Assembly: GCA_902727925.1 (NCBI GenBank)
Contig: CACVAW010000067.1
Location: 1 to 59,903, forward strand
DNA: 59,903 bases
Direction: 5' to 3'
Origin: an uncultured Campylobacterales bacterium
GTDB lineage: Bacteria > Campylobacterota > Campylobacteria > Campylobacterales > CACVAW01
In this document: positions 4,444-44,300 of the stretch, in pieces
Layout: every line of letters begins with the position of its first letter
Position numbering within the stretch: the stretch's first letter is position 1
Position numbers and translations under genes: made by a program
Notes under the pieces: generated by a model
Told to the model about the DNA's origin: nothing
Databases searched by the model: none
The model's input: only the letters and a program-made list of their open reading frames with translations

Positions 4444-4470
4444 ACACTTATTTAATAACTAGAAAAACAG

Positions 4471-5475
4471 ATGCCAACAGTTAATAATTATTTCAAACAA
4501 AATTTTTATGAATCTTTTTTTCCTATTTTTTTTAGTCTGTTTTTTTTAACATCTATTGTATTTTTTATTAAGATATCATCTATGACCTCTTTAATCAAGG
4601 TTAGTTTTACTGATCTTGGTACAATGTATCTCTTTTTGATACCTAAGATTTTACTATATACTCTTCCATTGTCATTTTTTATAGGTCTTACTCTTTGTGT
4701 TGCAAAGCTTTCAAAAGATAATGAATCTTTAGTTCTCTTTACTCTTGGTCTTAGTGCCAAGAAGTTTGCTAAGATATTTTTTAATATTGCTTTTATTTTT
4801 AGTTTTGTACTTCTTGTTAATAATCTATACCTTAAACCTACTACAAATATACTATACAAAAACTTCATTGCAAAGAAAAAACTGGATGCAAGGCTTAATA
4901 TAAAGGCCACAGAATTTGGACAAAAATTCGCAAACTGGCTTGTATTTGTAAATCAGACCAACAAAGATGAGTATCAAGATATAGTTATGTTTGACCAAAA
5001 AGAAGAAAGACTAATAACCTCAAAAAAAGCTTCCCTACAAAACAACTATAGCAATATCAACCTCGAACTAAACGACGGTAAAATATTTAGCAAAAAACAA
5101 AATGACTTTGAGCAAATCAACTTTGACAAGCTCAATATAAATACAAATGAATCAATAAGTGTGTCACTTCTTAATATCTCTAATTATTTTGAAAATCTAT
5201 TTACAAATGAAAAATATCTAGGCGATACAATATTTCATATACTTATGGGATTTCTTCCATTAGTTAGCTATTTGATTGCTATAAGTTTGGGTATGATTAA
5301 TTTTAGATATGAGAAGGGAAATATATATTTATATATGTTTGGATTTTTGATTTCGTTCTTTATTATTTCTAAGAACTTAAGTGAGAGTTTACTCTACCCT
5401 ACTCTTATTTTGATACCTTTTACTTATATTTTTTCTAAAATAATATATAAGTTCAAAGTATCAAATAAGTATTAA
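4471..5475 (+). CDS. LptF/LptG-family permease (YjgP/YjgQ)
   Basis: Predicted inner-membrane permease of the LPS-export ABC transporter, which pulls LPS out of the membrane toward LptA. The 334 aa protein has the family layout: three N-terminal membrane helices (residues about 15-35, 55-80, 100-120), a periplasmic domain of about 140 residues, and three C-terminal helices starting at FHILMGFLPLVSYLIAISLG. I cannot tell LptF from LptG by eye. It follows the peptidase by 27 nt and its end overlaps the convergent ttcA-like gene by 4 nt, leaving no room for a terminator. Confidence 0.78.
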   Translation: MPTVNNYFKQNFYESFFPIFFSLFFLTSIVFFIKISSMTSLIKVSFTDLGTMYLFLIPKILLYTLPLSFFIGLTLCVAKLSKDNESLVLFTLGLSAKKFAKIFFNIAFIFSFVLLVNNLYLKPTTNILYKNFIAKKKLDARLNIKATEFGQKFANWLVFVNQTNKDEYQDIVMFDQKEERLITSKKASLQNNYSNINLELNDGKIFSKKQNDFEQINFDKLNINTNESISVSLLNISNYFENLFTNEKYLGDTIFHILMGFLPLVSYLIAISLGMINFRYEKGNIYLYMFGFLISFFIISKNLSESLLYPTLILIPFTYIFSKIIYKFKVSNKY

Positions 5476-6221
5476 TTAGGCTCTACAAAAAAACTTTCTT
5501 GATGGATTTTTGTAAATGCTTTTTTCAAAGACACAAAAAGATCTTTGTTACTGCTTTCTAAAGTTGCTAAAAGTTCTTTAGCTTCTGCTCTTGCTCGTGG
5601 CATCTTTACATCAAACCTAAAAGCAGGACATGCCTCATCTCCAATAACAGGAAAGTCATTAAGCTTTGCACACTCTGCTAGTTGTCTTTCTCTTGCCATT
5701 ATGAGTGGTCTTATTACTTCTACCCCATTTTCAGCTGTATACACAGGAGGAAGCGAACGAAGAGACCCGTTATAAGTGAAATTCATAAAAAAGCTTTCTA
5801 CTGCGTCATCAAGGTGATGTCCAAGAGCAAGTTTATTGTATCCTTGTGCTAATGCAGTTCCATATAAAGCTCCTCTTCTCATACGAGAAAAAAAGCTACA
5901 AAAAGATGAGTTCTTACGAATCTTCTCGCCTGCAAGTTCAAAAGTTTTAGTTTGTATTACTTCATGTTCAATTCCGTATTTCTCACAATGCTTAGTTATA
6001 AAACTATAGTCTTCACCTGGCATACCATAATTCACAGTCACTGCTTTGATATGAAAATCAAAAGGTACAACTCTTTGAATATGTTTTAAGGTATGTGTAA
6101 GTGTAAATGAGTCTTTTCCACCACTAAGACCAACAAGTACTTTATCACCCTCTTTTATAAGCCCATAAGTTCCATTTGTCTTACCTGCAAGACTTAAAAT
6201 ACTTTTACTAATCTTTACCAA
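5472..6221 (-). CDS. TtcA-family tRNA 2-thiolation protein with incomplete iron-sulfur cysteines
   Basis: PP-loop ATPase of the TtcA family, which converts cytidine-32 of some tRNAs to 2-thiocytidine. The PP-loop SGGKDS lies at 33-38, and SRMRRGALYGTA and LALGHHLDDAVESFFMN are further family motifs. In E. coli TtcA the [4Fe-4S] cluster is held by three cysteines from two CxxC motifs. Here both motifs have lost the second cysteine (C108-S-F-F and C198-P-A-F), so only two candidate ligands remain. The 249 aa length is also short. Either the lineage uses another ligand or the activity differs. It overlaps mdh by 14 nt, so the two are probably co-transcribed. Confidence 0.82.
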   Translation of the reverse strand: MVKISKSILSLAGKTNGTYGLIKEGDKVLVGLSGGKDSFTLTHTLKHIQRVVPFDFHIKAVTVNYGMPGEDYSFITKHCEKYGIEHEVIQTKTFELAGEKIRKNSSFCSFFSRMRRGALYGTALAQGYNKLALGHHLDDAVESFFMNFTYNGSLRSLPPVYTAENGVEVIRPLIMARERQLAECAKLNDFPVIGDEACPAFRFDVKMPRARAEAKELLATLESSNKDLFVSLKKAFTKIHQESFFVEPN

Positions 6222-9628: not shown

Positions 9629-10963
9629 TTAAGAGTTTCCTGTGGAATTGTAGTACTCATACGCATCCGTAGCCCCATCAATAAATGCTTCCATTACATA
9701 CTTATATTGATTGATCGAGTGTCTACTTTTTTCCATTTCTACTATTATTTCAGGGACAAAAACATTACCTTTAAAGTCAAGTAAAAATATATTTTCTTGA
9801 ATCTCTTTTTCCAATATTTTGTTAAATGACATTTTATTTTCTACCATTGAAAGATTTGAATCAAGAACTTGAAGAACTTTTATAAATTCATCTACTTTTT
9901 GCATTCTTTGTGAATAAATTAATTCAAAGTTGCTTGCAGTCATAGGGACAAGTCTATTTACAAAATCTTTTACTTCATGGTTATAAAAGTTAGATAAGTT
10001 ATTTAAATCTTCATCTATCTTTACAAGCTTATTTTCAAAAGTTTTTTTAGTACCAAATATAGTATTAAAAAGTATCTCTTTTATCTTTCTTTTATCTGTA
10101 TAATCTCTCCATGCAATATTTTTAAGAAGTAATAAGTCTGAATAGTTTACATAATCTCTTTGGTTTAAGTACGCTGCTGACTTTAATATATTGTGCATAG
10201 TAGTTACAAGTTTTCTATCACTAATTTGAATTCTGTCTTGAATTATCTTTTGTTTGATTGTTGAATAGATATCTACTATATTATCAGGAATTCTTACAAA
10301 CTCTTTTGAAAATATATCACACATTTCAAGATCTTTAAGACTTACTTTTGTTTTTATCTCTTTTGAGTGATCATAGTCTCCTGCGATAAGTCTTTTGTAG
10401 TTTTCAGGTTCCTTAATACGCTCAACATCATAACGGATAAGAAGTCTATCATCAAAAGGTTCTAGCGCATCATCAGTAGGAAATTCATTTGAAGCACCAA
10501 AAAGAGTAATAAGAGGAACTTTAAAAGTACCTTTGCCCCTCATAGTAAAAGTCCTATCATTTGAGGTGATACCAAGAAGTGCATTTAATATACTTGATTG
10601 ACCTTTAAACATTTCATCAAGCATAACAAAGTGGGAGTCTAGTACACTATTTTTATAGTTATATACAAGATTACCCTCAGCATCTGTTATCATTGTTCCA
10701 AAGATCTCTTCAGGTTTTGTTTGGTGCATTACAAGATAATCAAAATATTTTGCATCAGCAACTGCTTTAAGAATGATATTAATAATATATGTTTTACCAG
10801 TACCTGGTTTACCAATCAAAAATACATGACTTCTTGCAAATATGGAAAGAATAAGTAATTTTACAAGTTCATCTCTTTCTATAACTTTTGCACTTACTTC
10901 ATCAATAAGAGTCTGAACCTTTTGAGATAAAATACCTCTAATCTCTAAATCTTGTTTATCCAT
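9629..10963 (-). CDS. MoxR/RavA-type AAA+ ATPase
   Basis: Predicted chaperone-like AAA+ ATPase. Walker A is GKPGTGKT (51-58), Walker B is FVMLDEMFKG, and sensor/arginine-finger regions follow (FGASNEFPTDDALEPFDDRLLIRYDV). The 'NEFPTDDALEPFDDRLL' block and the helical C-terminal half are typical of the RavA branch of MoxR proteins. Such ATPases usually pair with a von Willebrand factor A protein (ViaA), but none lies beside it. Downstream is only the hairpin-repeat cluster. It overlaps the HIT gene by one base, so it is the last gene of the accB-accC-gyrA-HIT run. Confidence 0.82.
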   Translation of the reverse strand: MDKQDLEIRGILSQKVQTLIDEVSAKVIERDELVKLLILSIFARSHVFLIGKPGTGKTYIINIILKAVADAKYFDYLVMHQTKPEEIFGTMITDAEGNLVYNYKNSVLDSHFVMLDEMFKGQSSILNALLGITSNDRTFTMRGKGTFKVPLITLFGASNEFPTDDALEPFDDRLLIRYDVERIKEPENYKRLIAGDYDHSKEIKTKVSLKDLEMCDIFSKEFVRIPDNIVDIYSTIKQKIIQDRIQISDRKLVTTMHNILKSAAYLNQRDYVNYSDLLLLKNIAWRDYTDKRKIKEILFNTIFGTKKTFENKLVKIDEDLNNLSNFYNHEVKDFVNRLVPMTASNFELIYSQRMQKVDEFIKVLQVLDSNLSMVENKMSFNKILEKEIQENIFLLDFKGNVFVPEIIVEMEKSRHSINQYKYVMEAFIDGATDAYEYYNSTGNS

Positions 10964-19274: not shown

Positions 19275-20846
19275 TTAGAATTCTTTTCTAAGATCATTTA
19301 AAGCATCATTAATATCAGTAGTATCAATCTCAAACTGATCGCCAACAAGAGCTTGAAAATACTCCATAAATTCATCTAAGTCTAAACATTGCTGCTTAGC
19401 TTGATATGCAGTCATACGAGTAGTATACGTAGCGTCCCAAGGAAGAGCTGCTCCATCTGGTCCTGAGGTTCTATCTGCATCTGAACACGCACTAAAACTA
19501 ATCTCAGTAAATTCTTTCATCGATACATCAGTACAATGTGTCCAGCTTTTACCAAGTTGCGCTTTGATTTGAACCATAAGTGTTTTTGAGAGCATATCCC
19601 CATAACAACAATAGTTTTTTCTATAAAGCGGATCTACCCAAGGTAAGGCACCAAGAAAACCATTATCATCAACTTCAAATTCTCTAATAAAATGACACAT
19701 GTCAAAGTCCACTTCAAGCTTCTCCCTAAAAAGCTTTGTAGCTTCATAGGTACTAAGATGTCTCTGACCTTTTTCTGCAGCGTCTTGTTCATCATTACAA
19801 CTATCGATATTATTAATACTAGTTAATAAATCAATGGCTACTTTTAAAAGAAGTTTACTAAATGGATCTGTTGGTAGAAAATTAAGAGCAGTTTTTGCTA
19901 TATTTGCAGGACTACTTAAAGCTTCATCTTTTTTCTTAGGGTCTGTTGCGTCAAATATTCCCATAATACAAGGTATAGCCGTAATCGCAGCTCCTAATAC
20001 ACGTAAAGCTTGCATCGCATCTTTTGCTTGTTCCATAGCCTCTTCGGCAGCAGTTGCATCTACCTCAAGAGGAAGTTGTTTGTATTCTAACATATATGTT
20101 ACTATACCACTATCACGAGATAATTCTCTTATAGCTATAAATTTATTCCAATTATTATTAGCTGCTAACTCTTTCTCAAACTCTACAAACTCATCATCAG
20201 GCATAGTCAAAATCATCTCTTCAGTAGTAGCTTCATCACAAAATTCATCTACCGGGTCACACTCTGGGTCACCTTCATCAGTATAAGCAGCTGCTAGATT
20301 AAGTCCAGTAGCTGCAAGACATCCAACACTTCTTATACTCATATCACCTATAAATGATGGCAAATACTTACCGTCACCTAAAACATCTTTGACAAAACTT
20401 TCAGCATATGCATCAGTGCCAAAACTAAGTGCTAGTCCAGCTAAATAATATGGGTCTTTCATCCAATCTAAATTAATTTCTGTACCATATACACAAGTAC
20501 CTTTCCATCCACCAAAAAGAGAATTAAACTTATTAAGCATTCCTAATTTGGCAAATAAACTACCTATAGTATCTGAAAAATCATGTGTTTTGATAACTAC
20601 ATCATGGTTATCTGTAAGACCATGTGTCCTATTGGTATCTTCCCATCTTAGGCACTGACCTTGAACTGTATTTGTTGTATTACACTCAAAAACAATCTCT
20701 TTTTGAGTGAATATCAAGCTTCCACCAGTATCTCCTATAGGTTCAAATTCATTAATCTCTATAAGAGTACAAGTAGGAGGTACAACTATAGGCGCACTTA
20801 TAAGAGTCCCAAAAAACAGTAATAAAATTAAATACATTTTTTTCAT
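19275..20846 (-). CDS. TraN-like exported protein (last gene of tra-like operon)
   Basis: A 523 aa exported protein. Residues 1-18 form a signal peptide (MKKMYLILLLFFGTLISA). The C-terminal third resembles the end of F-type TraN, the outer-membrane mating-pair stabiliser: 'YRKNYCCYGDMLSKTLM..QIKAQLGKSW' matches the TraN pattern 'YCCFxSKLxRIIxEQGRxQLGxxW', and a Cys-containing 'FTEISFSACSD' follows. The N-terminal two thirds are unfamiliar, with an acidic Cys pair region (PECDPVDEFCDE) and a helical stretch at about 260-320. The assignment is moderate, based on motif and on position after traW-traU-trbC. It starts 10 nt after the 1469 aa gene. Confidence 0.55.
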   Translation of the reverse strand: MKKMYLILLLFFGTLISAPIVVPPTCTLIEINEFEPIGDTGGSLIFTQKEIVFECNTTNTVQGQCLRWEDTNRTHGLTDNHDVVIKTHDFSDTIGSLFAKLGMLNKFNSLFGGWKGTCVYGTEINLDWMKDPYYLAGLALSFGTDAYAESFVKDVLGDGKYLPSFIGDMSIRSVGCLAATGLNLAAAYTDEGDPECDPVDEFCDEATTEEMILTMPDDEFVEFEKELAANNNWNKFIAIRELSRDSGIVTYMLEYKQLPLEVDATAAEEAMEQAKDAMQALRVLGAAITAIPCIMGIFDATDPKKKDEALSSPANIAKTALNFLPTDPFSKLLLKVAIDLLTSINNIDSCNDEQDAAEKGQRHLSTYEATKLFREKLEVDFDMCHFIREFEVDDNGFLGALPWVDPLYRKNYCCYGDMLSKTLMVQIKAQLGKSWTHCTDVSMKEFTEISFSACSDADRTSGPDGAALPWDATYTTRMTAYQAKQQCLDLDEFMEYFQALVGDQFEIDTTDINDALNDLRKEF

Positions 20847-20856
20847 AATCCACTCC

Positions 20857-23800
20857 TTATGGCGCTGTTATTGTGCAGTTGTCATCTACATAACATTCAT
20901 AATCTCTATTTTCTTTAGCACCTAAATTTATCAAATATACTCTATTGGCATATGGTAGAGGCTTTTCAAGGTCAACTACAAAGCCTCTTGAAAAATTTGT
21001 TGGTCTTACTACTAGTTTTGTAGCTGAATGGCTTTCTACCCATGCATCATTACTTTTTGAGCAAGTATATCCCTCTGGCGTATTAACTTCATAATAAGCT
21101 CCACTTACTCCCCCACCCCATTCAAGAACTTTACTCGCTAAACAAGCTCCTGAATTAAGACTGGCCGAGCCAACACCACTTGCAATTGTAAATTTTCCAT
21201 CCCCATCTTCTGTACTTATAGGTGAAGTTCCAAACTGTACAACTGAAGAATAAGCTTGTCCAGAGCCAAGCTTTATAAAGTCACTTTGTAATACAATTTT
21301 ACTTGCTAAGAGGTTATTATATTTATCATAGGCTTTTACTTCAAAATCACCTTGATAAGGGACTACTATACTTACACTGTTTACGGCATCTACATAAGCA
21401 GTATTCAAAGGTTTATTTAAAGTAGATGTACCATTTACTTCATCTGTTTTTGTTTTTCTCCAAGTGAATTTATACCACTTACCTTTAGCTGGATAACCTA
21501 TCGAGCTTTTTTCAAGACGGTTCAGTGTAGAACTGACTGCTCCAGAACTATACCCATGAGCTTCTAATCTTTTTTTCTTGCTTTCAAGGTAGTTTGATAC
21601 TCTTTGATTGTAGTCTTTTTGTTTTAGTAGTCCGGTAGTATACTTAAACCTATCATACCAAACTACTCCAGCAGCTTTATCAATCAACCTTGAATCATAT
21701 TTATTTGAGATAAGTCTAGCTGGTATATCTTCCTTGATTTCCCAGTCATGACTAAAATTACCGTATTTTTTAGGTTTTGCAAAAAATATTATCAAAATAA
21801 CTACTACGGCTACTATAAAAGCAACCATCAACAAAGTAGAACCCAATGTAGCTAATAAATTCTGGAAATATGGTAAAAACGAACCAAAACTTCCATATCC
21901 AAAATAAGACATAGTAGCAGCTCCACCATAAAGAATAGAAAACAGTAATGCTGTAGCACCCAAAGGTGTACCAGCAAACTGAGTTAAATCTGCGACTAAT
22001 CCTTCAAAAAGAGGATTGTGAGGATCTACTGTATCAACTATATTTAAGCATAAAGCATCTAACTCAAATTTGGGATCTTCTTTTGGGACTTTATTCTTAC
22101 AATGTTGAGTTTTATGAGATGAGTCATAAGTATAGTCCATAGTTTTATTCACAGTACCAAAAGTTTCTATTGGAAATACTGTAACACCACCAATTTGAAC
22201 TTGATTATTAACAATTGGTTTAGCATGGAAGTTTGTAAAGTATCCAAATCCTCTTGTGGCATCTGCGTACTCTTGAATAGAATAAATATCTTTTGTACCA
22301 TCAATCTCAGTAGCAAAACTTCCAGATGCAGTTTTTATCGTCTTAACTGTAGGTGTAACTGTAGGAGCAACTACGGGGTCTACTGCTTCTTCTGCATCAG
22401 TATCAGCTGCTTTTAATATACACTTTCCAGTAGCACTATTAAAACTTTCAACATAAGAATCTATACAATGTGATGTCTGATTACATTCTAATTCGCTCAA
22501 AGGTACACTTATCTCTATTTCTATGTCTGAACCTACTTTTTTGACAGATTTAACCAAGTCATCACCAAGTATTCTCTCACTCATCATATAACACATACCT
22601 GCTGAAGGAAAACCACTTTCATCATAAACACCCATATGATGACGGCTATCACCAGCGTATTCTTGAGGTCTAAATTCATTTGTTTTTGCAAATGGTTCGT
22701 ATCTTCCTTCTAAACACTCTTCTTTAGTTTCTGCGCAAGTAGCTCTCCACGAAGTACATACTGTTGGACAATCTTCCTCATCATCAACAGCTGATGCTGA
22801 TGCAGTTTTAAAGCTTAAACCTCCAGCTATAGGCTGTTCTCTTGTTGCAGTACAAGTTCTTGTAAATTTATAACATGTATTTATAAGGCAATCTCCAGCC
22901 TCATCAAATAAAAAACATTTTGATTCAACACACCTCTCAGAATAAGCAGCGCATACTGTTTCTGTAGCAGTAACAACGCTGGTTGCATTACCACACACTT
23001 TCCCACGACTAGTACAATTGCTAACATAACGAGCACAGACTGTTTCAGAGGAATCACAAACTTTATTTTTCTTCACATCACAAGTTCTTCTATCATAATA
23101 TTTACCTAGTTCTGGATTACCATCAAGTATATACGTGCTTGGATCTTCTAACGTACAAGTACTATCGTTTATATCATGTTCAAAACTTTTTTTGAATGTT
23201 TGGCCTAATCCTATTTTTGAACTTTCTTTACAACCACCATTATTTGTAATAGCTAGAGTATAATCTTTCCCAAGTTCTGAAATCCCATCTGAGGGAATCC
23301 AACCCTGAAGCCCAGCTATATATTCTGTCTGTTCAGGTACAGTAGGATCTGAGTCTAATGAGTCATCGAAAAATGGTGCTAATCTCTTAAATCTCCAAAC
23401 ATCTCCATTACCAGCAAACTTTGGACACATAACATTTGCTGGATCATTTGTACCATTATCATCAACTTGACCTGTTTGAATTTGATCTAAATCCATACCG
23501 CACTCTTCCATTTTAGAAGATGAAGACACCATTAAGTAAGCTTGTGAAGAGCTTGTATTAGTATCTACATCTGTGCCATCTAAATACGCTTTTTTAATAA
23601 TAGTTTTGAAAAAACCATTATTATTATAATCAAACCTTGTTGATATTTCTGGTCTTGCTTCATATATATCATTAATTCTTACACACATAGGATCATCTTG
23701 ATATATATCATCTTCGGTGATAGCTGTATTTACGGTATAATCTTGTTTAGTTAGGGCAACTTGACAAGAAAGCTGTGTAGTATTTACTTCATCTATATTC

Positions 23801-25266
23801 TCATATTCTAAACATTGTCTTTTTGTTTCACTAAGATATTGTCCATCTACTTCTACTGTATATCCATTGTTACACGGCGCGCTTAATGCTTTAAGCCTAC
23901 CATCAGTTCCATATATTTCTGTATGGCCATATTGTCTTTCACAATAAGTTGCACTCTCACATGCTTGATATTGTGCATCATCACTTCTATCTGTGATAGC
24001 CAAGATACAAGCTTTAAGTCCTTCGCAATCTGATTCTTTTGCGCCAGCTTTTAGACTTCCACCTGAAGCATTTGCAGCATTACACTCTTTGGGATATACT
24101 AACACACTCTCAAATATTTCACATTGTGAAGCTGTAGGAGGATTCACTGGTGGACATTCATATACATGAGTTACGATTCCATCTTTTATTTTTTCTTTTA
24201 CTGCATTTCCATTCTCATCATATACATATCTATACTCATAAGGTTTTGCTGGAGTTAAGTCCATTTTAAGACTACAAGAATTTTTGATATATCCATCACA
24301 TTCATTGACTCTACAAGTTGCTTGTTGCATTTGATGATTACACTGTTCTGCTACGAGTCTGTCATAATAACTTTTACATTGAACAACTCTAGGTTTGTTA
24401 TCTTTATTCACCTCTTCAGTGTATGCAACATTTACTAACGAACAAACCCCTCTTTTTATAGGTACACTAAATTGTGAATAAGCCAGATAATCAAGATCAA
24501 AGATTTGACCATTTATCGCTATATTGTCAGATTCATTTTTGAATATTCTTTGGATTTTAAACCATGGAGCACATATTTTTTTAGGAGCTTTATAGTTAGG
24601 TGAATCTATTTCTATCAAACATCTTGCATTAGTATTAAGGTTTTCTCTTTTCCATCTATGTGTATTAGCTGGTTTTATAACTCCCAACTTATTACTATCA
24701 CAAGGTTCATAAGGATTTAAAAAGTTTTCATATTCTTGTGTTCGTCCAAAACTATTTTGATAATCACTACTACAGTCAGTTCTCGTATAACCTATCCAAC
24801 TATTGTACTTAAAAAAGTTATCATTACTAACTTTATTATTTTCTACACTATTTTCAGGAGTATAGACTGTACCGTGATATTTATTTGCTTCAGCTAGACA
24901 AGAAGAATAGGACATTGTATTAAGTGATATAGCATATGTTTTATCAGCTACTGTGATATTGTTTTCATAGTTAATTTCAAAAGATTTCCAATCACTTTCA
25001 CCTGTAGGATTAATTTCCATAAATTTACAATTATTTTCACTTTTGTCATATAGACCGTATCCACCAAAAATATGTTTGTCCCCATAACTTGAAAGATCTT
25101 TATCTTTAAATGCAGTCATAGAACTACGGTAAAGTGCCGGATCATAATACCCATAAGGAAGTTTTGTTGTTTTACTTCCATCTGTAAGATTAATATCAAC
25201 TCTACTAACTACATCTACACAAAACAAACAGCTAATAAACAACAATAAATAAATAATAACTCGCAT
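20857..25266 (-). CDS. Giant cysteine-rich exported protein in tra-like operon
   Basis: A 1469 aa protein I cannot assign to a family. A signal peptide (MRVIIYLLLFISCLFC) is followed by a region near residues 100-200 resembling a C-type-lectin-like fold (SSCLAEANKYHGTVY ... NSWIGYTRTDC). A long ectodomain with dozens of cysteines follows, many in CxxxxxxC ladders between about 720 and 860. Two hydrophobic segments (about 1098-1126 and 1136-1162) then precede a basic linker (FFAKPKKYGNF) and a Ser/Gly-rich C-terminal domain of about 300 residues. Position between TrbC and the TraN-like protein suggests a mating-pair or surface-contact role, perhaps an expanded TraN. This is inference. Confidence 0.5.
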   Translation of the reverse strand: MRVIIYLLLFISCLFCVDVVSRVDINLTDGSKTTKLPYGYYDPALYRSSMTAFKDKDLSSYGDKHIFGGYGLYDKSENNCKFMEINPTGESDWKSFEINYENNITVADKTYAISLNTMSYSSCLAEANKYHGTVYTPENSVENNKVSNDNFFKYNSWIGYTRTDCSSDYQNSFGRTQEYENFLNPYEPCDSNKLGVIKPANTHRWKRENLNTNARCLIEIDSPNYKAPKKICAPWFKIQRIFKNESDNIAINGQIFDLDYLAYSQFSVPIKRGVCSLVNVAYTEEVNKDNKPRVVQCKSYYDRLVAEQCNHQMQQATCRVNECDGYIKNSCSLKMDLTPAKPYEYRYVYDENGNAVKEKIKDGIVTHVYECPPVNPPTASQCEIFESVLVYPKECNAANASGGSLKAGAKESDCEGLKACILAITDRSDDAQYQACESATYCERQYGHTEIYGTDGRLKALSAPCNNGYTVEVDGQYLSETKRQCLEYENIDEVNTTQLSCQVALTKQDYTVNTAITEDDIYQDDPMCVRINDIYEARPEISTRFDYNNNGFFKTIIKKAYLDGTDVDTNTSSSQAYLMVSSSSKMEECGMDLDQIQTGQVDDNGTNDPANVMCPKFAGNGDVWRFKRLAPFFDDSLDSDPTVPEQTEYIAGLQGWIPSDGISELGKDYTLAITNNGGCKESSKIGLGQTFKKSFEHDINDSTCTLEDPSTYILDGNPELGKYYDRRTCDVKKNKVCDSSETVCARYVSNCTSRGKVCGNATSVVTATETVCAAYSERCVESKCFLFDEAGDCLINTCYKFTRTCTATREQPIAGGLSFKTASASAVDDEEDCPTVCTSWRATCAETKEECLEGRYEPFAKTNEFRPQEYAGDSRHHMGVYDESGFPSAGMCYMMSERILGDDLVKSVKKVGSDIEIEISVPLSELECNQTSHCIDSYVESFNSATGKCILKAADTDAEEAVDPVVAPTVTPTVKTIKTASGSFATEIDGTKDIYSIQEYADATRGFGYFTNFHAKPIVNNQVQIGGVTVFPIETFGTVNKTMDYTYDSSHKTQHCKNKVPKEDPKFELDALCLNIVDTVDPHNPLFEGLVADLTQFAGTPLGATALLFSILYGGAATMSYFGYGSFGSFLPYFQNLLATLGSTLLMVAFIVAVVVILIIFFAKPKKYGNFSHDWEIKEDIPARLISNKYDSRLIDKAAGVVWYDRFKYTTGLLKQKDYNQRVSNYLESKKKRLEAHGYSSGAVSSTLNRLEKSSIGYPAKGKWYKFTWRKTKTDEVNGTSTLNKPLNTAYVDAVNSVSIVVPYQGDFEVKAYDKYNNLLASKIVLQSDFIKLGSGQAYSSVVQFGTSPISTEDGDGKFTIASGVGSASLNSGACLASKVLEWGGGVSGAYYEVNTPEGYTCSKSNDAWVESHSATKLVVRPTNFSRGFVVDLEKPLPYANRVYLINLGAKENRDYECYVDDNCTITAP

Positions 25267-25277
25267 AATTTTACTCC

Positions 25278-27944
25278 TTAATCAATATCGGCGTCTTGCA
25301 AAAATATAAATATTATAGCTTCTTTACCCATCTCATCATACTCAGGTATAAATTCAGCTTGCATAGACATATTTGCAGGTTTGCCTTTTATAAACATCTT
25401 CACACTATCAACTCCAATTGCTCCATCACCATTAATACTAGATGCATAGTTATTTGGATACAAAGAATCAAATATAACAACTTTAGAATCCTCTTTAGTC
25501 TCTTCTACTTTATCTATTATCGCTTGATAAGAGAAATTAGCACTAGAATAAAAGCTATGTACTTTATATGAGTGAATAAACCCTTTTTTAGTCTGGTCTT
25601 CTGCTACGTTATAAAGTTTTTTGATATCTGTACCACTACGATCAAATTCTTGAGAGTTAAACAACACTCCAGGTATATTAACTAATGTAGATTGTATACT
25701 ATCACTAATTTTAATGCTTTCGTATGTTCTATTATTATCGAACTTGATGGTTTTAAAACTCGGAGCCGTATTACCAACTCCATAAGCTACATCAAAATCA
25801 TTCACACCGTCAAAAGTTCTGTAGTTAGCTCTTCTTTCGTGAGTTATATCGTACCATTTATATTGTCCCTGAGTAACATCATCTTCAAAAAAGCCTTTAT
25901 CATATTCTATTCTAGCTATTATCATCCAATCATTTGCGCCCATTCCTGTTTTTAGTAGATAGATTTTATCTATTAACATAGTACGTGGATCATCATTCCC
26001 AAAAACTATTCTATTATTAGTGATATGAAACATACCAGCTATTGGGTAATATCTAACTTCTACTTCTAAAACTGTATATAAATTAAAATCACCAGAACCA
26101 TAATCAAAAGAGTTTGGCTTTAAAAGCCAATCAAAACTAGTTGCTAGTTTTGATTTATTTGCACCATATGCATTTTGTGTTTTAAAAGTTTCTTTTATCG
26201 GTTTTTTACTTATATCAAAGGTTCCATCGTCAATCATATTTTTGTAAGCTATATCTTTCATTTCATCTATAAAAAGCTGCGTTTTGTCAGTTGGTTTACT
26301 CATTTCACCTATATAGTCAACTCTAGGACGATTAACTCCAGGTACTGCAGTACCTGTTCTTACCGTATATACTGCTTCATTGTTTTTATCCCAGATGATT
26401 TCATCGATAGGCATTTTGTCATCTCTAAAATACTCTTCACACAAGGTATCTGTACAAGCACCATTTGGTCCAAACTCTTGACTACATTCTACTGCAGGTT
26501 CAAGATAGCTTGCTGATAATGCCCCGTGTAAATGCGCATATGAAGGCTGACATTCTGCTCTTTGTGTACAAGCAGCTTGACATGAATAGTTACTAAGATA
26601 TCCTCCAGTTGCTGGATCTCTATGTCTACTTGAGAAATTCTCTGGCACACAAATATGTCTTACTATACTTTCAGGATCTCCTGAAAAACTTTGTCCAGAT
26701 GAGTTACCATCAAGAACTACTCCTGCTCCTGCTGTTTTTACAAAACCATCTTCACAATCATTCACACCAGGAGTAAAGAACTGAGTATCAGGACAAAACC
26801 AATAATACTTACCATCATAGCTAACTTTGTATTTAGTGAGTTTTAGCTTTGTATTATTGCTTTCAAGAGAACCAATTCGCCCAACATAATTTCGCAAATA
26901 GATATTTTTAAAGTCAAACGCCAAATGAGAAAAAGAGTCATCTATAAAAATAGTCTTTTTTAATGTTGCTGATTTGATATAAAGGTCATTATCTCTTGAG
27001 TAGTACTCTTCATCAGTTCCGGATTTACCTTTTGTTAATATGTCATATTTTATAAACATTGTTATATTATCATCAGCTAAAAGCTCAGCCATTTCATCAG
27101 TAGAAAAATCAAATTCCAATTCTATTTTATTTGTATACTGATTAGCTGAGAGTGGTATATCAACTCGGTTATTTATTACCTCAGTATTCACAGTCCTTTC
27201 ATCGTCAATTTTTAGTGTATTATCAGTCTTGATAGCTGTACAGTTTATGTCCTCAAAACATCTCTCTTCACACTCTCGCTTGGCTTTTTCAGGTATTGTT
27301 TTTACATCTCCACCTGTATGATAGGTCATATTTGGAAGTGGACAGATATAGCTATGATGAATTTCACGAGAAATTTGACAAACTATCCTACTACTATGTA
27401 CTATTTGTGATTCGAATTTTTGATACAAGTCTTCGTGTGAATCTAGAATTTGTACTGTTACATTGTCTCCACTTGCTACTGCGTCTGCAAGTACTCTATC
27501 TTTTGTCCATAGTTCCATATCCATAGGGTCTTTTTGATACGTTGGATTGTCACTTTTTAAGTCTTGTACTACGCCTACAGCTTTATCAATAAGTACAGGA
27601 TGAGCTTTTCCTACATATTTTGCTACCTCACCTGCTCTTGAAAAATTCATATCACGTGAAAATTCCCAGGTACCATTTTCGTCGATAGTTATATTTACAT
27701 CTGCTGCTGGTAATATTTTTTCTGCACTTATATATTGCCCAACATTAGGCTTAAGAAAAGTCCCATTTTCATCTCTTGATCTGTTGTTTTCAACTCTATA
27801 GAGAACAAAATGTTCATTTCCATCTGTTGTACCTGGCTCAAATTCAAAAGCCTGTGAAGGCACTGCTGTAGGATCAAAAGTAGCTGATGACAAAAATGCC
27901 ATTAAAAAGCTAATAATTATTAATTTAGTTTTCAATAAGTTCAA
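25278..27944 (-). CDS. Large exported protein of unknown function in tra-like operon
   Basis: An 888 aa protein with a signal peptide (MNLLKTKLIIISFLMAFLSSA) and no other membrane helix. No family is recognised. Visible features are two cysteine clusters (ECEERCFEDINCTA near 230, and a denser one around 460-510 including SCQAACTQRAEC and CSQEFGPNGACTDTLCEEYF), separated by beta-rich, Asp/Asn-rich sequence. The last 350 residues are almost Cys-free. The start overlaps trbC by 20 nt and the stop is 11 nt before the 1469 aa gene, so it belongs to the operon. The position is where F plasmids carry traN, so it may supply part of that function. Confidence 0.5.
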   Translation of the reverse strand: MNLLKTKLIIISFLMAFLSSATFDPTAVPSQAFEFEPGTTDGNEHFVLYRVENNRSRDENGTFLKPNVGQYISAEKILPAADVNITIDENGTWEFSRDMNFSRAGEVAKYVGKAHPVLIDKAVGVVQDLKSDNPTYQKDPMDMELWTKDRVLADAVASGDNVTVQILDSHEDLYQKFESQIVHSSRIVCQISREIHHSYICPLPNMTYHTGGDVKTIPEKAKRECEERCFEDINCTAIKTDNTLKIDDERTVNTEVINNRVDIPLSANQYTNKIELEFDFSTDEMAELLADDNITMFIKYDILTKGKSGTDEEYYSRDNDLYIKSATLKKTIFIDDSFSHLAFDFKNIYLRNYVGRIGSLESNNTKLKLTKYKVSYDGKYYWFCPDTQFFTPGVNDCEDGFVKTAGAGVVLDGNSSGQSFSGDPESIVRHICVPENFSSRHRDPATGGYLSNYSCQAACTQRAECQPSYAHLHGALSASYLEPAVECSQEFGPNGACTDTLCEEYFRDDKMPIDEIIWDKNNEAVYTVRTGTAVPGVNRPRVDYIGEMSKPTDKTQLFIDEMKDIAYKNMIDDGTFDISKKPIKETFKTQNAYGANKSKLATSFDWLLKPNSFDYGSGDFNLYTVLEVEVRYYPIAGMFHITNNRIVFGNDDPRTMLIDKIYLLKTGMGANDWMIIARIEYDKGFFEDDVTQGQYKWYDITHERRANYRTFDGVNDFDVAYGVGNTAPSFKTIKFDNNRTYESIKISDSIQSTLVNIPGVLFNSQEFDRSGTDIKKLYNVAEDQTKKGFIHSYKVHSFYSSANFSYQAIIDKVEETKEDSKVVIFDSLYPNNYASSINGDGAIGVDSVKMFIKGKPANMSMQAEFIPEYDEMGKEAIIFIFLQDADID

Positions 27945-28575
27945 AATAATACTCCTTCAGACTACTGTTATCCTCACCAATAAGCGAGAAAAAATAATCT
28001 AGTTTGATATCTCCACGAACCAAGTACTTGATTTCACAATCACTTGGATAGATACTTCTTTTGTTACACTGAGCAAATGCTAATGCTGGAGCTTTAGTAA
28101 TATTAAACTTCCTAAAAACATTAAAGTCAATTTTCATATAAAAATGTTCAAAAGAACCTGAATCATTCAAGTCTTCATTCATATATCTGTTTAGCTCTTT
28201 GATTTGGTCAATAGAATCCCCACTAATACCTTCATAAATATTACGGTACTCCAAATCTGGATATTTTGACTTTAATTTATTTACACTCGTTAGAGTATTT
28301 GATATATTTGCCAGAGGTACAGAAGCTGATACAAAATGAAATATAGTATCTACTAAAATAGGGTTTTTGAGTAACTCTACTTCTTTTTTATATGAATCAA
28401 CTAGCCATCTGTCTTTGGCTGGAAGTTGTTTTTCATACATATTAAGTACATGATCAGGTATTTGATATGTATTTGGTTTATTATATTTTGCAATAGCTGG
28501 TATATCATTAATAATAGCTTGCGCATCAAAAGAGTATAAAAACGATATTATCAATATAAAACATATTTTTTTCAT
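27925..28575 (-). CDS. TrbC-like F-type conjugation/pilus assembly protein
   Basis: A 216 aa protein with a signal peptide ending near residue 20 (FDAQA). The body has the thioredoxin-like TrbC_Ftype layout: LLKNPILVDTIFHFVSASVPLANISNTL, then a FNVFRKFNITKAPALAFAQC segment matching the family pattern of an 'F..F.I...PA' strand, and a beta-rich end (IKYLVRGDIKLDYFFSLI). In the F system TrbC is a periplasmic protein needed for pilus assembly and works with TraW. Here the gene starts 2 nt after traU, the same neighbour order as in F. No catalytic CxxC is present, as in other TrbC proteins. Confidence 0.72.
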   Translation of the reverse strand: MKKICFILIISFLYSFDAQAIINDIPAIAKYNKPNTYQIPDHVLNMYEKQLPAKDRWLVDSYKKEVELLKNPILVDTIFHFVSASVPLANISNTLTSVNKLKSKYPDLEYRNIYEGISGDSIDQIKELNRYMNEDLNDSGSFEHFYMKIDFNVFRKFNITKAPALAFAQCNKRSIYPSDCEIKYLVRGDIKLDYFFSLIGEDNSSLKEYYFELIEN

Positions 28576-28577
28576 AA

Positions 28578-29795
28578 TTATTCCTTAGCCCTTAGATATC
28601 CCTTGCCTGCTTTTGCCTGAGCACTATTACCTGCAGCTTGATATGCTCCAGCTACATAGTGTCTTCGCTGCCAAAGAAGTGCTGCTGTATCATTAGCTGT
28701 ACTACCATCATCTTTTGCTATCAAGTGGAAGTTATTAACACCAATTTCAAGCAATGAACTTATCCTAGGAGTAACCAACTGAAATACAAACTGTGTATGA
28801 ATATACCCAAAAGGACTTCTTAGTGGTCCACAAAGGACTTCTTTGTTCCATCCATTCATTATACTTTTCACAGTTTGTTTGAGAACTCCAAGTTTACCAT
28901 AAGTCCAAAATACCCAAGAAACCATATTAAGAAGACTCTCAGACCCTACATCACTTTGTACATGTGCACCCATAAGCTTAACCCCAATACATCCATTCAT
29001 CGGAAATATTGCATCAAGCACAGCCATATATCCACCACCATTATAAGATACACTACCTTCATCTGGACGAGGTACTTTACAAGCTGCTGAACCGTTACTA
29101 CACTGTTGTGATATATCAAGCGCTTCAGCTGCCAAGCAAGAAGCAAGTCCACCCACAAGAAGTATCTGAGGTACTAAAACAGCATACATTTCAGGATGCA
29201 TTACATGAAGCATAAACGAATTTTTAGATGTTGGGTCAAGTTCACTCAAGTATGGTGCCATATGTGGACCTGTAAGATCTTCAACAACTATAAATTCAGC
29301 TATTCTAGGAAAGGCTTTAAGAAACATAGCCATTATAGGGAATGGTATCATATGAAAGTTTGTAATCCTACCAGGGACTACATTGACACCAAACTTTATA
29401 AAATTAGCTTTTGACCCAAAGTCTAATCCGAATACTGCAATATTTAAAGGCTTTTGAACTATCTCTATAAGTCTTACAGGCTCTATTAATCCGGCTACTA
29501 AACCTACTAATCCTACATGAGTTTTACCATCTTTTAGAGCTTCCCAACCGCAACTAAAATTTATTCCTCTTACTTCAAGGGATTTTGCAAATGCATTCCA
29601 ATCTATAGTTTTAAATATCCTTTGAAGAAATGGTTTTTGAGCTAGAGGTACTTTACTAGATATCTCAGTAGGAATATTAGCTTCATAATCAACTGTCTCA
29701 AATGTCACATCAAGATCAACTCCTCCTACATTTATAGCACTAAGATAAGTATTAATTACAAATAAAAGAATTACTAACTTAAATATTTTTCTCAT
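28578..29795 (-). CDS. TraU-like F-type conjugation protein
   Basis: Exported 405 aa protein (signal peptide MRKIFKLVILLFVINTYLSA). The TraU signature is visible: CGWEALKDGK, GLIEPVRLIEIVQKPLNIAVFG, VNVVPGRITNFHMIPFPI, GCIGVKLMGAHVQSD and a C-terminal QFVFQLVTPRI. In the F plasmid TraU is a periplasmic protein required for efficient DNA transfer rather than pilus assembly. This copy is longer than F TraU (about 330 aa) and lacks several of the usual cysteines. It overlaps the traW-like gene by 4 nt. Confidence 0.8.
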   Translation of the reverse strand: MRKIFKLVILLFVINTYLSAINVGGVDLDVTFETVDYEANIPTEISSKVPLAQKPFLQRIFKTIDWNAFAKSLEVRGINFSCGWEALKDGKTHVGLVGLVAGLIEPVRLIEIVQKPLNIAVFGLDFGSKANFIKFGVNVVPGRITNFHMIPFPIMAMFLKAFPRIAEFIVVEDLTGPHMAPYLSELDPTSKNSFMLHVMHPEMYAVLVPQILLVGGLASCLAAEALDISQQCSNGSAACKVPRPDEGSVSYNGGGYMAVLDAIFPMNGCIGVKLMGAHVQSDVGSESLLNMVSWVFWTYGKLGVLKQTVKSIMNGWNKEVLCGPLRSPFGYIHTQFVFQLVTPRISSLLEIGVNNFHLIAKDDGSTANDTAALLWQRRHYVAGAYQAAGNSAQAKAGKGYLRAKE

Positions 29796-30427
29796 AGTAT
29801 ATCTCCTTTTACTCTTAGTTTTTGTTTTATTATATTCATATCTATAGTAGTATAGTCAAAATATTTGTCATATATCTTTACTTTTGTTGGAAGGACTTTT
29901 AGGTTAAATCTTTTTTTGTAGTTTTTGTCATATGGATATACTTCTTTCCCAGCAAAAAGTGGGTTTGGGTACATTTCTCTTATATCTGCGCCTGATATCA
30001 TATATATATCACAAGACCCAAGAGCTTTTATCGTAGGGTCAAGAAGAATTCTTTCCTTTGCATCTATAAAGCAAATTGTTTGAGACTGATTAAGTGGAAA
30101 ACTAGGATAGATCTTTTCGCCAGCTTTTTTTATGACTGGGCCATCCATTCTAGCTTTGAGATCATAATCTAGTATCACATAATTTTCTCTTGTGTATTTT
30201 TGAGTGATATTACTCTCAGGAAGATCTGAATTCTTAGTGAATGAATTTTCTATCATAGTTTTATAATTGTTGCGTAACTCTTTTTTGTCTAGTTTGTCAT
30301 AACCCTCTTTCATCATCTCTTTAAAGTTTTTTTCTTTTACTTCGTAAGTATTACCTACTGTACCAAAATCTTTAAAGCCAAATAAAAGTCCAAATATAAA
30401 ACAAAATAATATAGTAATACGAATCAT
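29792..30427 (-). CDS. TraW-like F-type conjugation protein
   Basis: First gene of the tra-like operon: 211 aa, signal peptide MIRITILFCFIFGLLFG. It matches the TraW family: DFGTVGNTYEVKEKNF near the N terminus corresponds to 'DLGVxGxTYPIxExD', QTICFIDAKER to the 'LLFIDGDD' strand, and KRFNLKVLPTKVKI to the terminal 'RFGIxxVPAxV' motif. TraW is a periplasmic protein for F-pilus assembly. Homology covers most of the length but is diverged. A divergent gene starts 131 nt upstream, and that gap must hold the operon promoter. Confidence 0.75.
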   Translation of the reverse strand: MIRITILFCFIFGLLFGFKDFGTVGNTYEVKEKNFKEMMKEGYDKLDKKELRNNYKTMIENSFTKNSDLPESNITQKYTRENYVILDYDLKARMDGPVIKKAGEKIYPSFPLNQSQTICFIDAKERILLDPTIKALGSCDIYMISGADIREMYPNPLFAGKEVYPYDKNYKKRFNLKVLPTKVKIYDKYFDYTTIDMNIIKQKLRVKGDIL

Positions 30428-30558: not shown

Positions 30559-31185
30559 ATGAAAAATATTGTTTTTTTAATTTTTTTAACTATTTTTTTA
30601 AGCGCAAATAATCAGGCTCTTAGAAATAAAATAACAAATGAAGTGTTTAAAGTCGATACCGACCAAATATTTAAAGAGCTTAGAGATGAAGTTGGAATAC
30701 AAAGATTTCAAGATGAATACAACATCATACGAAATGAACAAAACTTCAAAAAAGCACTTATAAACCTAAAGCAAACAGTCCTAGCAAAGCATCAAAGAAA
30801 CTTAAACAAAGATGCTCTAAGTATGCCAAACTTCAAAGATGCTTTAAAAAATCTTGAAGCTAGCTTAAAGGTAAGAGACTCTTTTATTACTTCACATTTA
30901 GCACTTAAGGCAATATATACAAGATACTGGATGAATGATATTGCTATCAACAAACAATACACTCTTCTCTTTGCTGAGTCTGCATATAATGCCAAGATAT
31001 GTAGTGGATACTTGTATTATGCTCTTATGACAAAAGAGATTACAAGAAGTATAGAAAAAAGCGTATCTATATATAAAGAAGGAACAAAAAACTGTAAAGA
31101 CAAATATATACAAAGAGAAATAGCCCTAAAGTATCACAAGTATAAATATATAGTAAAAAACAATATACCTCTATACACAAAATAA
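30559..31185 (+). CDS. Exported protein of unknown function
   Basis: A 208 aa protein with a signal peptide (MKNIVFLIFLTIFLSA) and a helical, Lys-rich body; no family is recognised. Segments such as NFKDALKNLEASLKVRDSFITSHLALKAIYTRYW look like helical tetratricopeptide-type hairpins, but repeat periodicity is not clear. A strong ribosome binding site (AAAGGA) precedes the ATG. Its TAA is immediately followed by the comM ATG, so the two are co-translated, and it diverges from the tra-like operon. Whether it serves that operon or comM is unknown. Confidence 0.6.
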   Translation: MKNIVFLIFLTIFLSANNQALRNKITNEVFKVDTDQIFKELRDEVGIQRFQDEYNIIRNEQNFKKALINLKQTVLAKHQRNLNKDALSMPNFKDALKNLEASLKVRDSFITSHLALKAIYTRYWMNDIAINKQYTLLFAESAYNAKICSGYLYYALMTKEITRSIEKSVSIYKEGTKNCKDKYIQREIALKYHKYKYIVKNNIPLYTK

Positions 31186-42231: not shown

Positions 42232-43326
42232 TTGGACGCATACGAATATACCGAACTAATAAAAGTACTAAAATCAAAGATAGCAAATATATCAGCTATA
42301 GTCAAACCTGATGAATTAAAATCCAAACTCAAAGACATTGAACTTCAAGAAGCAGAGCCATCATTTTGGGAAGACCCAAAAAATGCAGCAAAAGTACAAA
42401 AAGACAAAAACCAAAAACTAAGACTTCTAACAGCATTTAGCAAAGCTAATACGGCTCTAAACGATGCGTCTGAGCTATACCAAATGGCTCTAAGTGAAAA
42501 TGATGAAGATACAATAGAAGAACTTTTTTCTGATGCGCCTAGCCTAAATGAACATATAAAAGAACTTGAAATATCAATACTTCTTAGCAATGAAGAAGAC
42601 TCACTAAATGCTATCATATCTATTCACCCAGGAGCTGGAGGAACAGAATCTCAAGACTGGGCAGCGATGCTATACAGAATGTATCTCAAATGGGCAAAAG
42701 CAAAAGGCTTTAGCGTTGAAGAGCTAGATTATCAAGCTGGTGAAGAAGCTGGTATCAAAGATGTGAGTTTTAGAATCATAGGAGAAAATGCCTACGGTAT
42801 GCTAAAAGTTGAAAATGGTATTCACAGACTTGTAAGAATATCGCCTTTTGACTCAAATGCCAAAAGACATACATCATTCACATCTGTCATGGTATCACCC
42901 GAAGTAGATGATGATATAGATATAGTAATAGAAGATAGAGATATAAGAATAGATACATACAGAGCAAGTGGAGCTGGAGGTCAACATGTCAATAAAACAG
43001 ACTCAGCAATCAGAATAACACACATAGAAACAAACCTAGTAGTCCAATGCCAAAACGACCGTTCACAACACAAAAACAAAGCAAGTGCCATGAAAATGCT
43101 AAAGTCACGTCTATACGAACTTGAACTCGAAGCAAAACAAGCAGAAAAAGATGGTATAAGCAAAGATGAAATAGGATGGGGACATCAAATACGCTCATAT
43201 GTACTTGCACCATACAAACAAGTAAAAGACACAAGAAGTAATATAGCATACTCAAATGTAGACGCAATACTAGATGGAGACATCACAAAAGTCATGGAAG
43301 ACGCACTAGTATCCAAGCTAAAATAA
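42232..43326 (+). CDS. prfB: Peptide chain release factor 2
   Basis: Recognises UGA/UAA stop codons and triggers peptide release. The GGQ motif is in [15 protein letters not shown] (about 247-249), and the stop-codon tripeptide SPF lies in [15 protein letters not shown]. The start is TTG at 42232, with AGGAAG 5 nt upstream. The frame is open throughout (364 aa), so the programmed +1 frameshift that regulates prfB in E. coli is absent, as is usual in this lineage. The RhuM-Fic ATG overlaps the stop codon by one base. Confidence 0.96.
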
Positions 43327-44300
43327 TGAACAATATAATAATATACGAAAACGGAAATGTAGAATTAAAAACGACCGTTCAAGATGAGAGTGTTTGGCTA
43401 AGTCAAAAACAAATGGAATCCTTATTTGGTAGAGAAAGAAGTGTTATAACCAAACACATAAACAATGTATTCAAAGAAGGCGAATTAGAAAAATCTACAG
43501 TATGTGCAAATTTTGCACATACTGCAAAAGATAAAAAAACATATGATGTAAAACATTATAATTTAGATGTAATAATATCTGTAGGATACAGAGTAAAATC
43601 TAAACAAGGCACAAAGTTTAGACAATGGGCTACAACTATACTTAAAGATCATCTCATAAAAGGCTACACCCTAAACAAACAAAAGCTCGCATCCAAAAAA
43701 CTTGACGAACTAAACCAAACAATAAACTTCATAAAACAAAGTATCCAAAACAAAGAACTAAATACAAAAGAATCAAAAGGTTTCATCGAAATCATAAGCA
43801 ACTACGCAAAAAGTTGGGCTTTGCTACAAGGTTATGATGAAGGAAGTTTAATTGATGTATTAAAACAAGACAAAAAGAAGTTTATACTAGATTATGATGA
43901 AGCAAAACTAGCAATAAAAGAGTTTAAAACTATACTTATACAAAAAAACGAAGCTACAGAACTTTTCGGTAATGAAAAAGCAGATGAGCTAAAAGGACAT
44001 TTAAGAAGTATATATCAAACATTCGGAGGAATTGACTTATTACCTTCACTTGAATTAAAAGCTGCAAACCTACTATACTATGTAATAAAAGGACATCCAT
44101 TTAATGACGGAAACAAAAGAATAGGTGCATATCTATTCATACTATTTCTTTCAAAAAACAAATATTTATATAAACAAAATGGCGAACTAAAAATAAATGA
44201 TAATGCACTTACTACCATATCCCTTTTAGTAGCCTCATCCGATCCATCTCAAAAAGAAATAATAATAAAACTAATCACAAATATACTCTATGAAGAATAA
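43326..44300 (+). CDS. RhuM-Fic fusion protein
   Basis: Two modules. Residues 1-110 are a RhuM ('virulence protein') domain: WLSQKQMESLFGRERSVITKHINNVF, YDVKHYNLDVIISVGYRVKS and GTKFRQWATTILKDHLIKGY. The C-terminal Fic/Doc domain carries the full catalytic motif HPFNDGNKR at 257-265, which transfers AMP or another nucleotide or phosphate group to target proteins. Such fusions are mostly found on genomic islands next to restriction or toxin-antitoxin genes, and the RhuM part may bind DNA. It is wedged between prfB and truB and shares start/stop bases with prfB. No antitoxin is obvious. The target is unknown. Confidence 0.82.
   Translation: MNNIIIYENGNVELKTTVQDESVWLSQKQMESLFGRERSVITKHINNVFKEGELEKSTVCANFAHTAKDKKTYDVKHYNLDVIISVGYRVKSKQGTKFRQWATTILKDHLIKGYTLNKQKLASKKLDELNQTINFIKQSIQNKELNTKESKGFIEIISNYAKSWALLQGYDEGSLIDVLKQDKKKFILDYDEAKLAIKEFKTILIQKNEATELFGNEKADELKGHLRSIYQTFGGIDLLPSLELKAANLLYYVIKGHPFNDGNKRIGAYLFILFLSKNKYLYKQNGELKINDNALTTISLLVASSDPSQKEIIIKLITNILYEE

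What the first reader, a model, noticed from the sequence alone, without database searches (positions are those of the whole stretch)
19275..30427. Isolated traW-traU-trbC operon with three very large partner proteins
Six exported proteins are encoded head to tail with overlaps or gaps of at most 11 nt. The first three match F-type conjugation factors in F-plasmid order. The rest replace TraN with 888, 1469 and 523 aa proteins. No pilin, TraB/K/V channel, TraC ATPase, coupling protein or relaxase is here, and both flanks are core genes. This could be half of a chromosomal secretion or contact machine, or a repurposed periplasmic/outer-membrane subassembly.
Basis: partly seen in the sequence, partly recalled or inferred. 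Interest (0 to 1): 0.75.

Follow-up and report, generated by a model that had tools for sequence, protein, structure and literature searches.

The report
Scattered chromosomal F-type secretion machine
The six genes are one block of a nearly complete F-plasmid-type conjugation machine whose genes lie at four or more places among housekeeping genes of a bacterial genome, and whose main motor protein is fused to a domain that normally binds or degrades a bacterial signal molecule, which suggests an old mobile element turned into a resident, signal-controlled surface machine.

Summary
The operon is real. TrbC passes Pfam's cut-off; TraW and TraU match more weakly but are tied to clear Tra proteins through relatives. 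The 523-aa protein is TraN-like at its C-terminus. All three large proteins have homologues in contiguous F-type systems of the same order.

C15 has pilin, TraL, TraE, TraK. C68 has TraB, TraV-like and a TraC fused to an EAL domain. C18 has TraF-like, TraH, DsbC-like and transglycosylase-like genes. Each block abuts housekeeping genes, some overlapping. The TraC-EAL fusion also occurs on Malaciobacter mytili plasmid pAMYT, on an unnamed relative's chromosome and in Sulfurimonas indica, so it marks a family. TraG and the family's own TraD were not found in this genome. Two allelic copies of the TraH block show purifying selection.

Best reading: a domesticated F-type pilus/contact machine whose TraC motor is gated by c-di-GMP through a degenerate, FimX-like EAL domain. 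Architecture is well supported; function is inferred. DNA uptake (as in H. pylori ComB) and helping mobilizable elements remain open rivals. New variant of a known kind.

The parts
29792..30427 (-). TraW-like exported protein, 211 aa
   Evidence: TIGR02743 TraW 1.4e-7; homologous to pAMYT 211-aa protein 1.7e-10
28578..29795 (-). TraU-like exported protein, 405 aa
   Evidence: PF06834 1.7e-4, below cut-off; homologous to G075 339-aa protein 1.5e-8, itself linked to pAMYT TraU, PF06834 2.2e-29
27925..28575 (-). TrbC-like exported protein, 216 aa
   Evidence: PF09673 1.2e-10, above cut-off; only match in the genome
25278..27944 (-). 888-aa exported protein, conserved component of this T4SS family, function unknown
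   Evidence: 1.2e-24 to the G170 protein; 22% identity over 713 aligned columns to pAMYT 778-aa protein, 5.9e-21; no Pfam match above cut-off
20857..25266 (-). 1469-aa cysteine-rich exported protein (54 Cys); both ends match the G170 691-aa protein and the N-terminal half of pAMYT's 1576-aa protein; about 720 extra residues in the middle with a hydrophobic stretch at 1134-1169
19275..20846 (-). 523-aa exported TraN-like protein (TraN C-terminal region)
   Evidence: PRK12355 TraN 4.1e-4 at residues 409-453; 7.3e-17 to G170 846-aa protein, which is TraN 5.7e-8
30559..31185 (+). 208-aa exported protein, divergent from traW, ending directly before the comM-like gene that starts at 31186; homologues lie next to traW in pAMYT and G170
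   Evidence: 6.4e-9 to pAMYT 195-aa protein; pAMYT and G170 homologues match each other 1.1e-15
9629..10963 (-). MoxR/RavA-like AAA+ ATPase, 444 aa; possible further piece of the system
   Evidence: bpMoxR 6.4e-43; 3.4e-78 to the MoxR after traD in G170; 28-32% identity to three element MoxRs. Not tested whether genomes without the T4SS also have it

Best explanation
The operon is one block of a dispersed, nearly complete F-type type IV secretion system that descends from a mobile element and is now resident in the chromosome. SHOWN by sequence: pilin, TraL, TraE, TraK; TraB, TraV-like, TraC-EAL; TraF-like, TraH, DsbC-like, transglycosylase-like; TraW, TraU, TrbC and TraN-like proteins lie in four blocks on four contigs of one genome, next to core genes. 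SHOWN: TraC carries a C-terminal EAL domain in 4 of 4 family TraC proteins read (the TraC of G075 was not looked for). SHOWN: the DD and first-Glu positions of the EAL motif are changed in all four. INFERRED: the EAL domain does not hydrolyse c-di-GMP but binds it, as FimX does, so that c-di-GMP directly switches the TraC motor. INFERRED: the machine extends an F-like filament or builds a contact channel; the TraN-like and the 888/1469-aa proteins act at the surface in contact with a partner cell or substrate. INFERRED: it no longer transfers its own DNA, since its genes are scattered and the family's TraD and TraG are not detected.
For: Own genome: TraC_F_IV 2.0e-29 on C68, TraH on C18 and C31, TraE 9.6e-16 on C15, TrbI/TraB on C68, the only one in the genome. 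Domains: TraC_F_IV 7.7e-28, P-loop_TraG 3.2e-23, EAL 1.9e-38 in one 1156-aa protein; VirB2 pilin 1.2e-8, TraL 9.3e-5, TraK_C 1.9e-13. Family: contiguous homologous clusters in G170 and G163 = Malaciobacter mytili pAMYT, a partial one in G075; TraC-EAL in Sulfurimonas indica. Two allelic copies of the TraH block: dN/dS 0.058 (TraF-like), 0.157 (TraH), 0.048 (TPR), 0.196 (81 codons of the transglycosylase-like gene) against 0.041 for mqnE (Fisher p 4e-30, 1e-27, 1e-8, 0.02 for the four). GC3 of eleven system genes 0.146-0.234 against 0.122-0.230 in ten flanking or core genes. EAL; FimX precedent: passages of PMC8389850.
Against: TraG was not detected (PF07916; G170 TraG), and passages of PMC7555446 say that N-terminal TraG mutations affect pilin polymerisation, so a pilus may not be built unless something substitutes. 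Motif loss does not prove loss of hydrolysis, and binding was not tested. The genome is a 69-contig draft, so genes may be missing and the true distances between blocks are unknown. Selection was measured for only one of the four blocks. No expression, filament or phenotype data exist. Three other coupling-protein- or VirB4-like ATPases and a relaxase exist in the genome, so DNA transfer cannot be excluded.
Confidence: 0.5

Rival explanations
1. A DNA-uptake machine like Helicobacter pylori ComB: a chromosomal T4SS in separate operons, without coupling protein, whose pilin and VirB4-type motor pull DNA into the periplasm.
For: Same logic in the same phylum: passages of PMC7366825 state that the com genes form two operons plus genes elsewhere and lack VirD4. 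Here too the genes are dispersed and the family's TraD is not found. The 208-aa system gene runs into a comM-like gene.
Against: ComB as described there is VirB-like; here TraW, TraU, TrbC, TraH, TraF-like and a TraN-like protein are all retained, which in F serve filament dynamics and mating contact (passages of PMC7555446). ComEC and ComH were not searched for.
Confidence: 0.17
2. A still-working conjugation machine kept on the chromosome, for which mobilizable elements in the same genome bring their own coupling protein and relaxase.
For: C27 has a relaxase (PF03432 8.9e-11), MobC and a VirD4-like protein; C55 a second VirD4-like protein. Only one VirB10/TraB-type protein was found in the genome, so no second T4SS was seen for them to use.
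Against: Those coupling proteins are VirD4-like and 17-19% identical to the family's TraD; mobilizable plasmids commonly use a T4SS of another, absent plasmid (general knowledge). TraG not detected.
Confidence: 0.12
3. A contact-dependent effector-protein secretion system.
For: Chromosomal T4SSs have been turned to effector delivery elsewhere (general knowledge); the large surface proteins could bind target cells.
Against: I recognised no effector or immunity gene in the blocks read; no cognate coupling protein found.
Confidence: 0.1
4. Relics of a broken-up conjugative element under decay, or a binning artefact.
For: TraG and TraD not found; draft genome of 69 contigs with 1.81% contamination.
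Against: The ORFs of the four blocks are open; dN/dS 0.05-0.2 in the block with two alleles; all four contigs also carry housekeeping genes against the blocks; GC3 alike.
Confidence: 0.06

Closest known systems
F-type (MPF-F) conjugative T4SS, as in plasmid F
   Same: Pilin, TraL, E, K, B, V-like, C, W, U, TrbC, TraN-like, TraF-like, TraH and a DsbC-like protein; traW-traU-trbC in F order
   Different: Genes in at least four blocks among core genes; TraC fused to EAL; TraN split into 1469+523 aa; TraG and the family's TraD not detected; extra 888-, 240-, 208- and 175-aa conserved proteins
Malaciobacter mytili plasmid pAMYT (NZ_CP031220) tra cluster
   Same: Homologues of nearly all components including TraC-EAL, the 208-aa and the large proteins
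   Different: Contiguous on a plasmid; has TraD, TraG and a GGDEF-EAL protein; TraN-like protein in one piece of 1576 aa; MOB-suite calls it non-mobilizable
H. pylori ComB DNA-uptake T4SS
   Same: Chromosomal, in separate operons, no VirD4 (passages of PMC7366825)
   Different: ComB is VirB-like; here F-type with the filament and contact gene set and an EAL-fused motor
Archaeal Ced
   Same: Domesticated chromosomal conjugation machinery (abstract of PMC9905601)
   Different: Archaeal; no EAL-fused motor stated in the abstract
FimX-PilB control of type IV pili
   Same: Degenerate EAL domain acting on a pilus-assembly ATPase; c-di-GMP bound, not hydrolysed (passages of PMC8389850)
   Different: FimX is a separate protein acting on PilB through PilZ; here the EAL domain is covalently part of a VirB4/TraC-type motor

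Membership tests
F-type T4SS | TraC/VirB4 motor of the TraC_F_IV family | tested here: met
   PF11130 7.7e-28, cut-off passed
F-type T4SS | F-specific TraW, TraU, TraH, TraF, TrbC, TraN | tested here: met
   TrbC and TraH above cut-off; TraW, TraU, TraN weaker, supported through relatives; TraF only in the G075 homologue, 6e-4, below cut-off
F-type T4SS | TraK/TraV/TraB core, TraE, TraL, pilin | tested here: met
   TrbI 6.8e-23, TraK_C 1.9e-13, VirB2 pilin 1.2e-8, TraL 9.3e-5 just below cut-off, TraE 9.6e-16; TraV only by homology to the pAMYT lipoprotein
F-type T4SS | TraG N-terminal region (TraG_N) | tested here: not met
   No match to PF07916 at E<=1 (the control E. coli rings) or to G170 TraG; absence from a draft genome
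Self-transmissible conjugative element | Contiguous transfer region with cognate coupling protein and relaxase | tested here: not met
   Dispersed blocks; pAMYT TraD finds nothing. VirD4-like proteins and a relaxase exist on other contigs
c-di-GMP phosphodiesterase (active EAL) | Full EAL catalytic motif set | tested here: not met
   In 4 of 4 TraC-EAL proteins DD is DG or DN and the first Glu of the AExxE motif is lost; E, N, D, K, second E and QG kept. That these positions are catalytic is recalled
FimX-like c-di-GMP receptor | Binds c-di-GMP without hydrolysis | not testable with these tools
   Only motif and homology evidence
ComB-like competence T4SS | Imports DNA together with ComH and ComEC | not tested

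The most novel reading that the evidence does not exclude
A conjugation machine has become a core, scattered organ of the cell: an F-type pilus whose assembly motor carries its own c-di-GMP receptor, used for cell-cell contact or for exchange of chromosomal DNA between kin, with mobilizable elements able to plug in their own coupling proteins.
Probability: 0.3. Interest if true: 0.9.

Novelty: new variant of a known kind. Interest (0 to 1): 0.72.

Why it matters
The domesticated T4SSs I could compare are VirB-like (H. pylori ComB) or archaeal (Ced). A dispersed F-type system under selection would add another route. A TraC motor fused to an EAL domain would be a direct physical link between c-di-GMP and a conjugation-type motor, which can be tested with one purified protein. 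I found neither in the paper searches made here, which cover an open-licence library only.

Tried and rejected
Rejected: an ordinary integrated plasmid near the window (the rest of the 59,903-bp contig is mostly core genes). Rejected: a lone periplasmic subassembly (channel, pilin and motor genes exist in the genome). Rejected as the family's TraD: the proteins on C55, C27 and C43 (17.5-20.7% identity to the two TraD proteins compared).

Led nowhere: PHROGs; TraU against plasmids, no match; single-protein TraC scan of genome contigs; viral-contig scan; PDB searches with the TraN-like alignment and the 888-aa protein; structure of the 523-aa protein from a single sequence, mean pLDDT 34.5, not used; att-like repeats round the operon, none convincing; promoter and terminator scans, at shuffle level.

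Against my reading: the TraU search over the order found 2 of 398 genomes and the TraF-like search 4 of 398, so the system is rare and conservation of the dispersed layout could not be tested; the window's family has one held genome. The G170 TraG and pAMYT TraD searches had no positive-control genome. The MoxR gene was not tested for specificity.
Full report
OBSERVATION. The six minus-strand ORFs are as described. Gaps are at most 11 nt; the 888-aa ORF overlaps trbC by 20 nt if it starts at the TTG. Each starts with a hydrophobic segment. TrbC passes the Pfam cut-off (1.2e-10); TraU (1.7e-4) does not; TraW is seen by NCBIfam (1.4e-7). The 523-aa protein has a weak TraN match at residues 409-453 (4.1e-4). 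The window is the whole of contig C67 of a 1,504,492-bp, 69-contig genome, 99.19% complete and 1.81% contaminated.

THE OTHER HALF. Family searches of the same genome found TraH on C31 and C18, TraC on C68, TraE on C15 and a single TrbI/TraB, on C68. Reading the surroundings and scanning them with Pfam gives four blocks. A, C15: VirB2-type pilin, TraL, TraE, TraK and a 764-aa lipoprotein-like ORF, whose end overlaps topA by 4 nt. B, C68: after an addA-like gene, TraB, a 67-aa ORF, a TraV-like lipoprotein, a 155-aa coiled coil, TraC-EAL, then secA 25 nt on. C, C18: 360-aa TraF-like, TraH, a TPR-like protein, a transglycosylase-like protein, an SH3-domain lipoprotein, a DsbC-like protein and a 175-aa membrane protein that overlaps polA by 4 nt. 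D, the window: the 208-aa gene, which runs into a comM-like gene, and divergent from it TraW, TraU, TrbC and the 888-, 1469- and 523-aa proteins. Names of housekeeping genes are from my reading of the translations. That each block stands in the chromosome rests on these neighbours; the genome is not closed.

FAMILY. The TraF-like alignment finds 4 of 398 genomes of the order: G000, G075, G163 and G170. G163 contig C2 is Malaciobacter mytili plasmid pAMYT (170,445 bp; TraC-EAL 100% identical), which places the order as Campylobacterales. G163 and G170 carry the system as one cluster, in an order that broadly corresponds to the four blocks of G000; G075 carries a partial, rearranged cluster on a 17.6-kb contig. 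TraG_N is found in the G170 protein (2e-21) and TraD in the pAMYT protein (TraG-D_C 2.8e-10), and each has its counterpart in the other. In pAMYT the 1469- and 523-aa proteins correspond to one 1576-aa protein; in G170 to 691+846 aa; the window's 1469-aa protein has about 720 extra residues between its two matching ends. The G170 846-aa protein is TraN (5.7e-8). Among 72,556 plasmids, one record covers at least 80% of TraC-EAL (the search kept the best 5000 records), and one matches the TraF-like protein. A genome-contig scan with the TraC-EAL alignment gave one more, Sulfurimonas indica, where TraC-EAL, TraD, MoxR, topoisomerase and an EAL protein lie close together.

THE EAL DOMAIN. In G000, TraC residues 926-1152 match EAL at 1.9e-38. 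PDB relatives include PA0861, Lmo0131 and FimX. Aligned with the pAMYT GGDEF-EAL protein and the S. indica EAL protein, 4 of 4 TraC-EAL proteins keep E, N, D, K, the second E and QG, but have DG or DN for DD and lack the first Glu of the AExxE motif. That these positions are catalytic is recalled from the literature on EAL enzymes. The pattern fits a receptor rather than an enzyme; FimX, whose EAL binds but does not hydrolyse c-di-GMP and which acts on the PilB motor, is the precedent (passages of PMC8389850). Proteins with c-di-GMP-type domains also accompany the cluster in pAMYT and S. indica.

IS IT IN USE? C31 and C18 hold two alleles of block C with the same neighbour, mqnE. dN/dS is 0.058, 0.157, 0.048 and 0.196 for the four T4SS genes compared and 0.041 for mqnE (Fisher tests). 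GC3 of eleven system genes (0.146-0.234) is like that of ten flanking or core genes (0.122-0.230). So the genes look like old residents and, at least in block C, are under purifying selection.

WHAT IS MISSING. TraG was not found by profile or by the G170 protein, nor TraD by the pAMYT protein. A coupling-protein profile found other proteins: VirD4-like ones on C55 and C27, the latter with a relaxase and MobC, and a VirB4/TraD-like one on C43 beside RepM- and ParA-like genes. They look like parts of mobilizable or plasmid elements.

MECHANISM. The retained set is that of F filament extension and retraction and of mating contact (roles from passages of PMC7555446). The undetected set is that of DNA substrate delivery plus TraG. 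I therefore favour a filament or contact machine whose TraC motor is gated by c-di-GMP. The absence of TraG, whose N-terminal part affects pilin polymerisation in F, is the main difficulty. ComB-like uptake (passages of PMC7366825), helper conjugation and effector secretion remain possible.

NOVELTY. F-type T4SS is a known kind. New, as far as I can see, are the dispersal among core genes and the TraC-EAL fusion. Paper searches listed nothing on either; only the listings were seen, except for passages of PMC7555446, PMC8389850 and PMC7366825, a term search of PMC12857230 without hits, and the abstract and section list of PMC9905601.

Noticed in passing
window 51028-51369: Five copies of a repeat spaced 71-74 nt, CRISPR-array-like, downstream of Cas1/Cas2/Cas4-like ORFs (49101-50792, by eye); a reverse-transcriptase-like 710-aa ORF lies at 45183-47315.
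   Followed up: partly
window 20857-25266: The 1469-aa protein has about 720 residues (566-1284) absent from its G170 homologue, with a strongly hydrophobic stretch at 1134-1169, unusual inside an exported protein.
   Followed up: partly
L035 (G000 C14) 2-6181: Filamentous-phage-like genes (Zot family 1.1e-14), an exported 583-aa protein with low-complexity linkers and an integrase-like ORF; filamentous phages often use pili as receptors, so the F-like machine could be one.
   Followed up: partly
L034 (C27) and L033 (C55): Relaxase, MobC and VirD4-like coupling protein on C27, a second VirD4-like protein (70% identical) beside a DnaJ-domain protein on C55.
   Followed up: partly
L010 (C31) against L009 (C18): Two alleles of one locus in the bin; synonymous divergence varies from 0.11 (TPR gene) to 0.35 (TraF-like gene), which suggests recombination between strains.
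   Followed up: partly
L026 43060-43904 (pAMYT 108059-108903): TraK of pAMYT appears as two short ORFs, perhaps broken.
   Followed up: no
window 43326-44300 and 47421-48410: Two ORFs that look related by eye (RhuM/Fic-like) flank the reverse-transcriptase-like gene.
   Followed up: no
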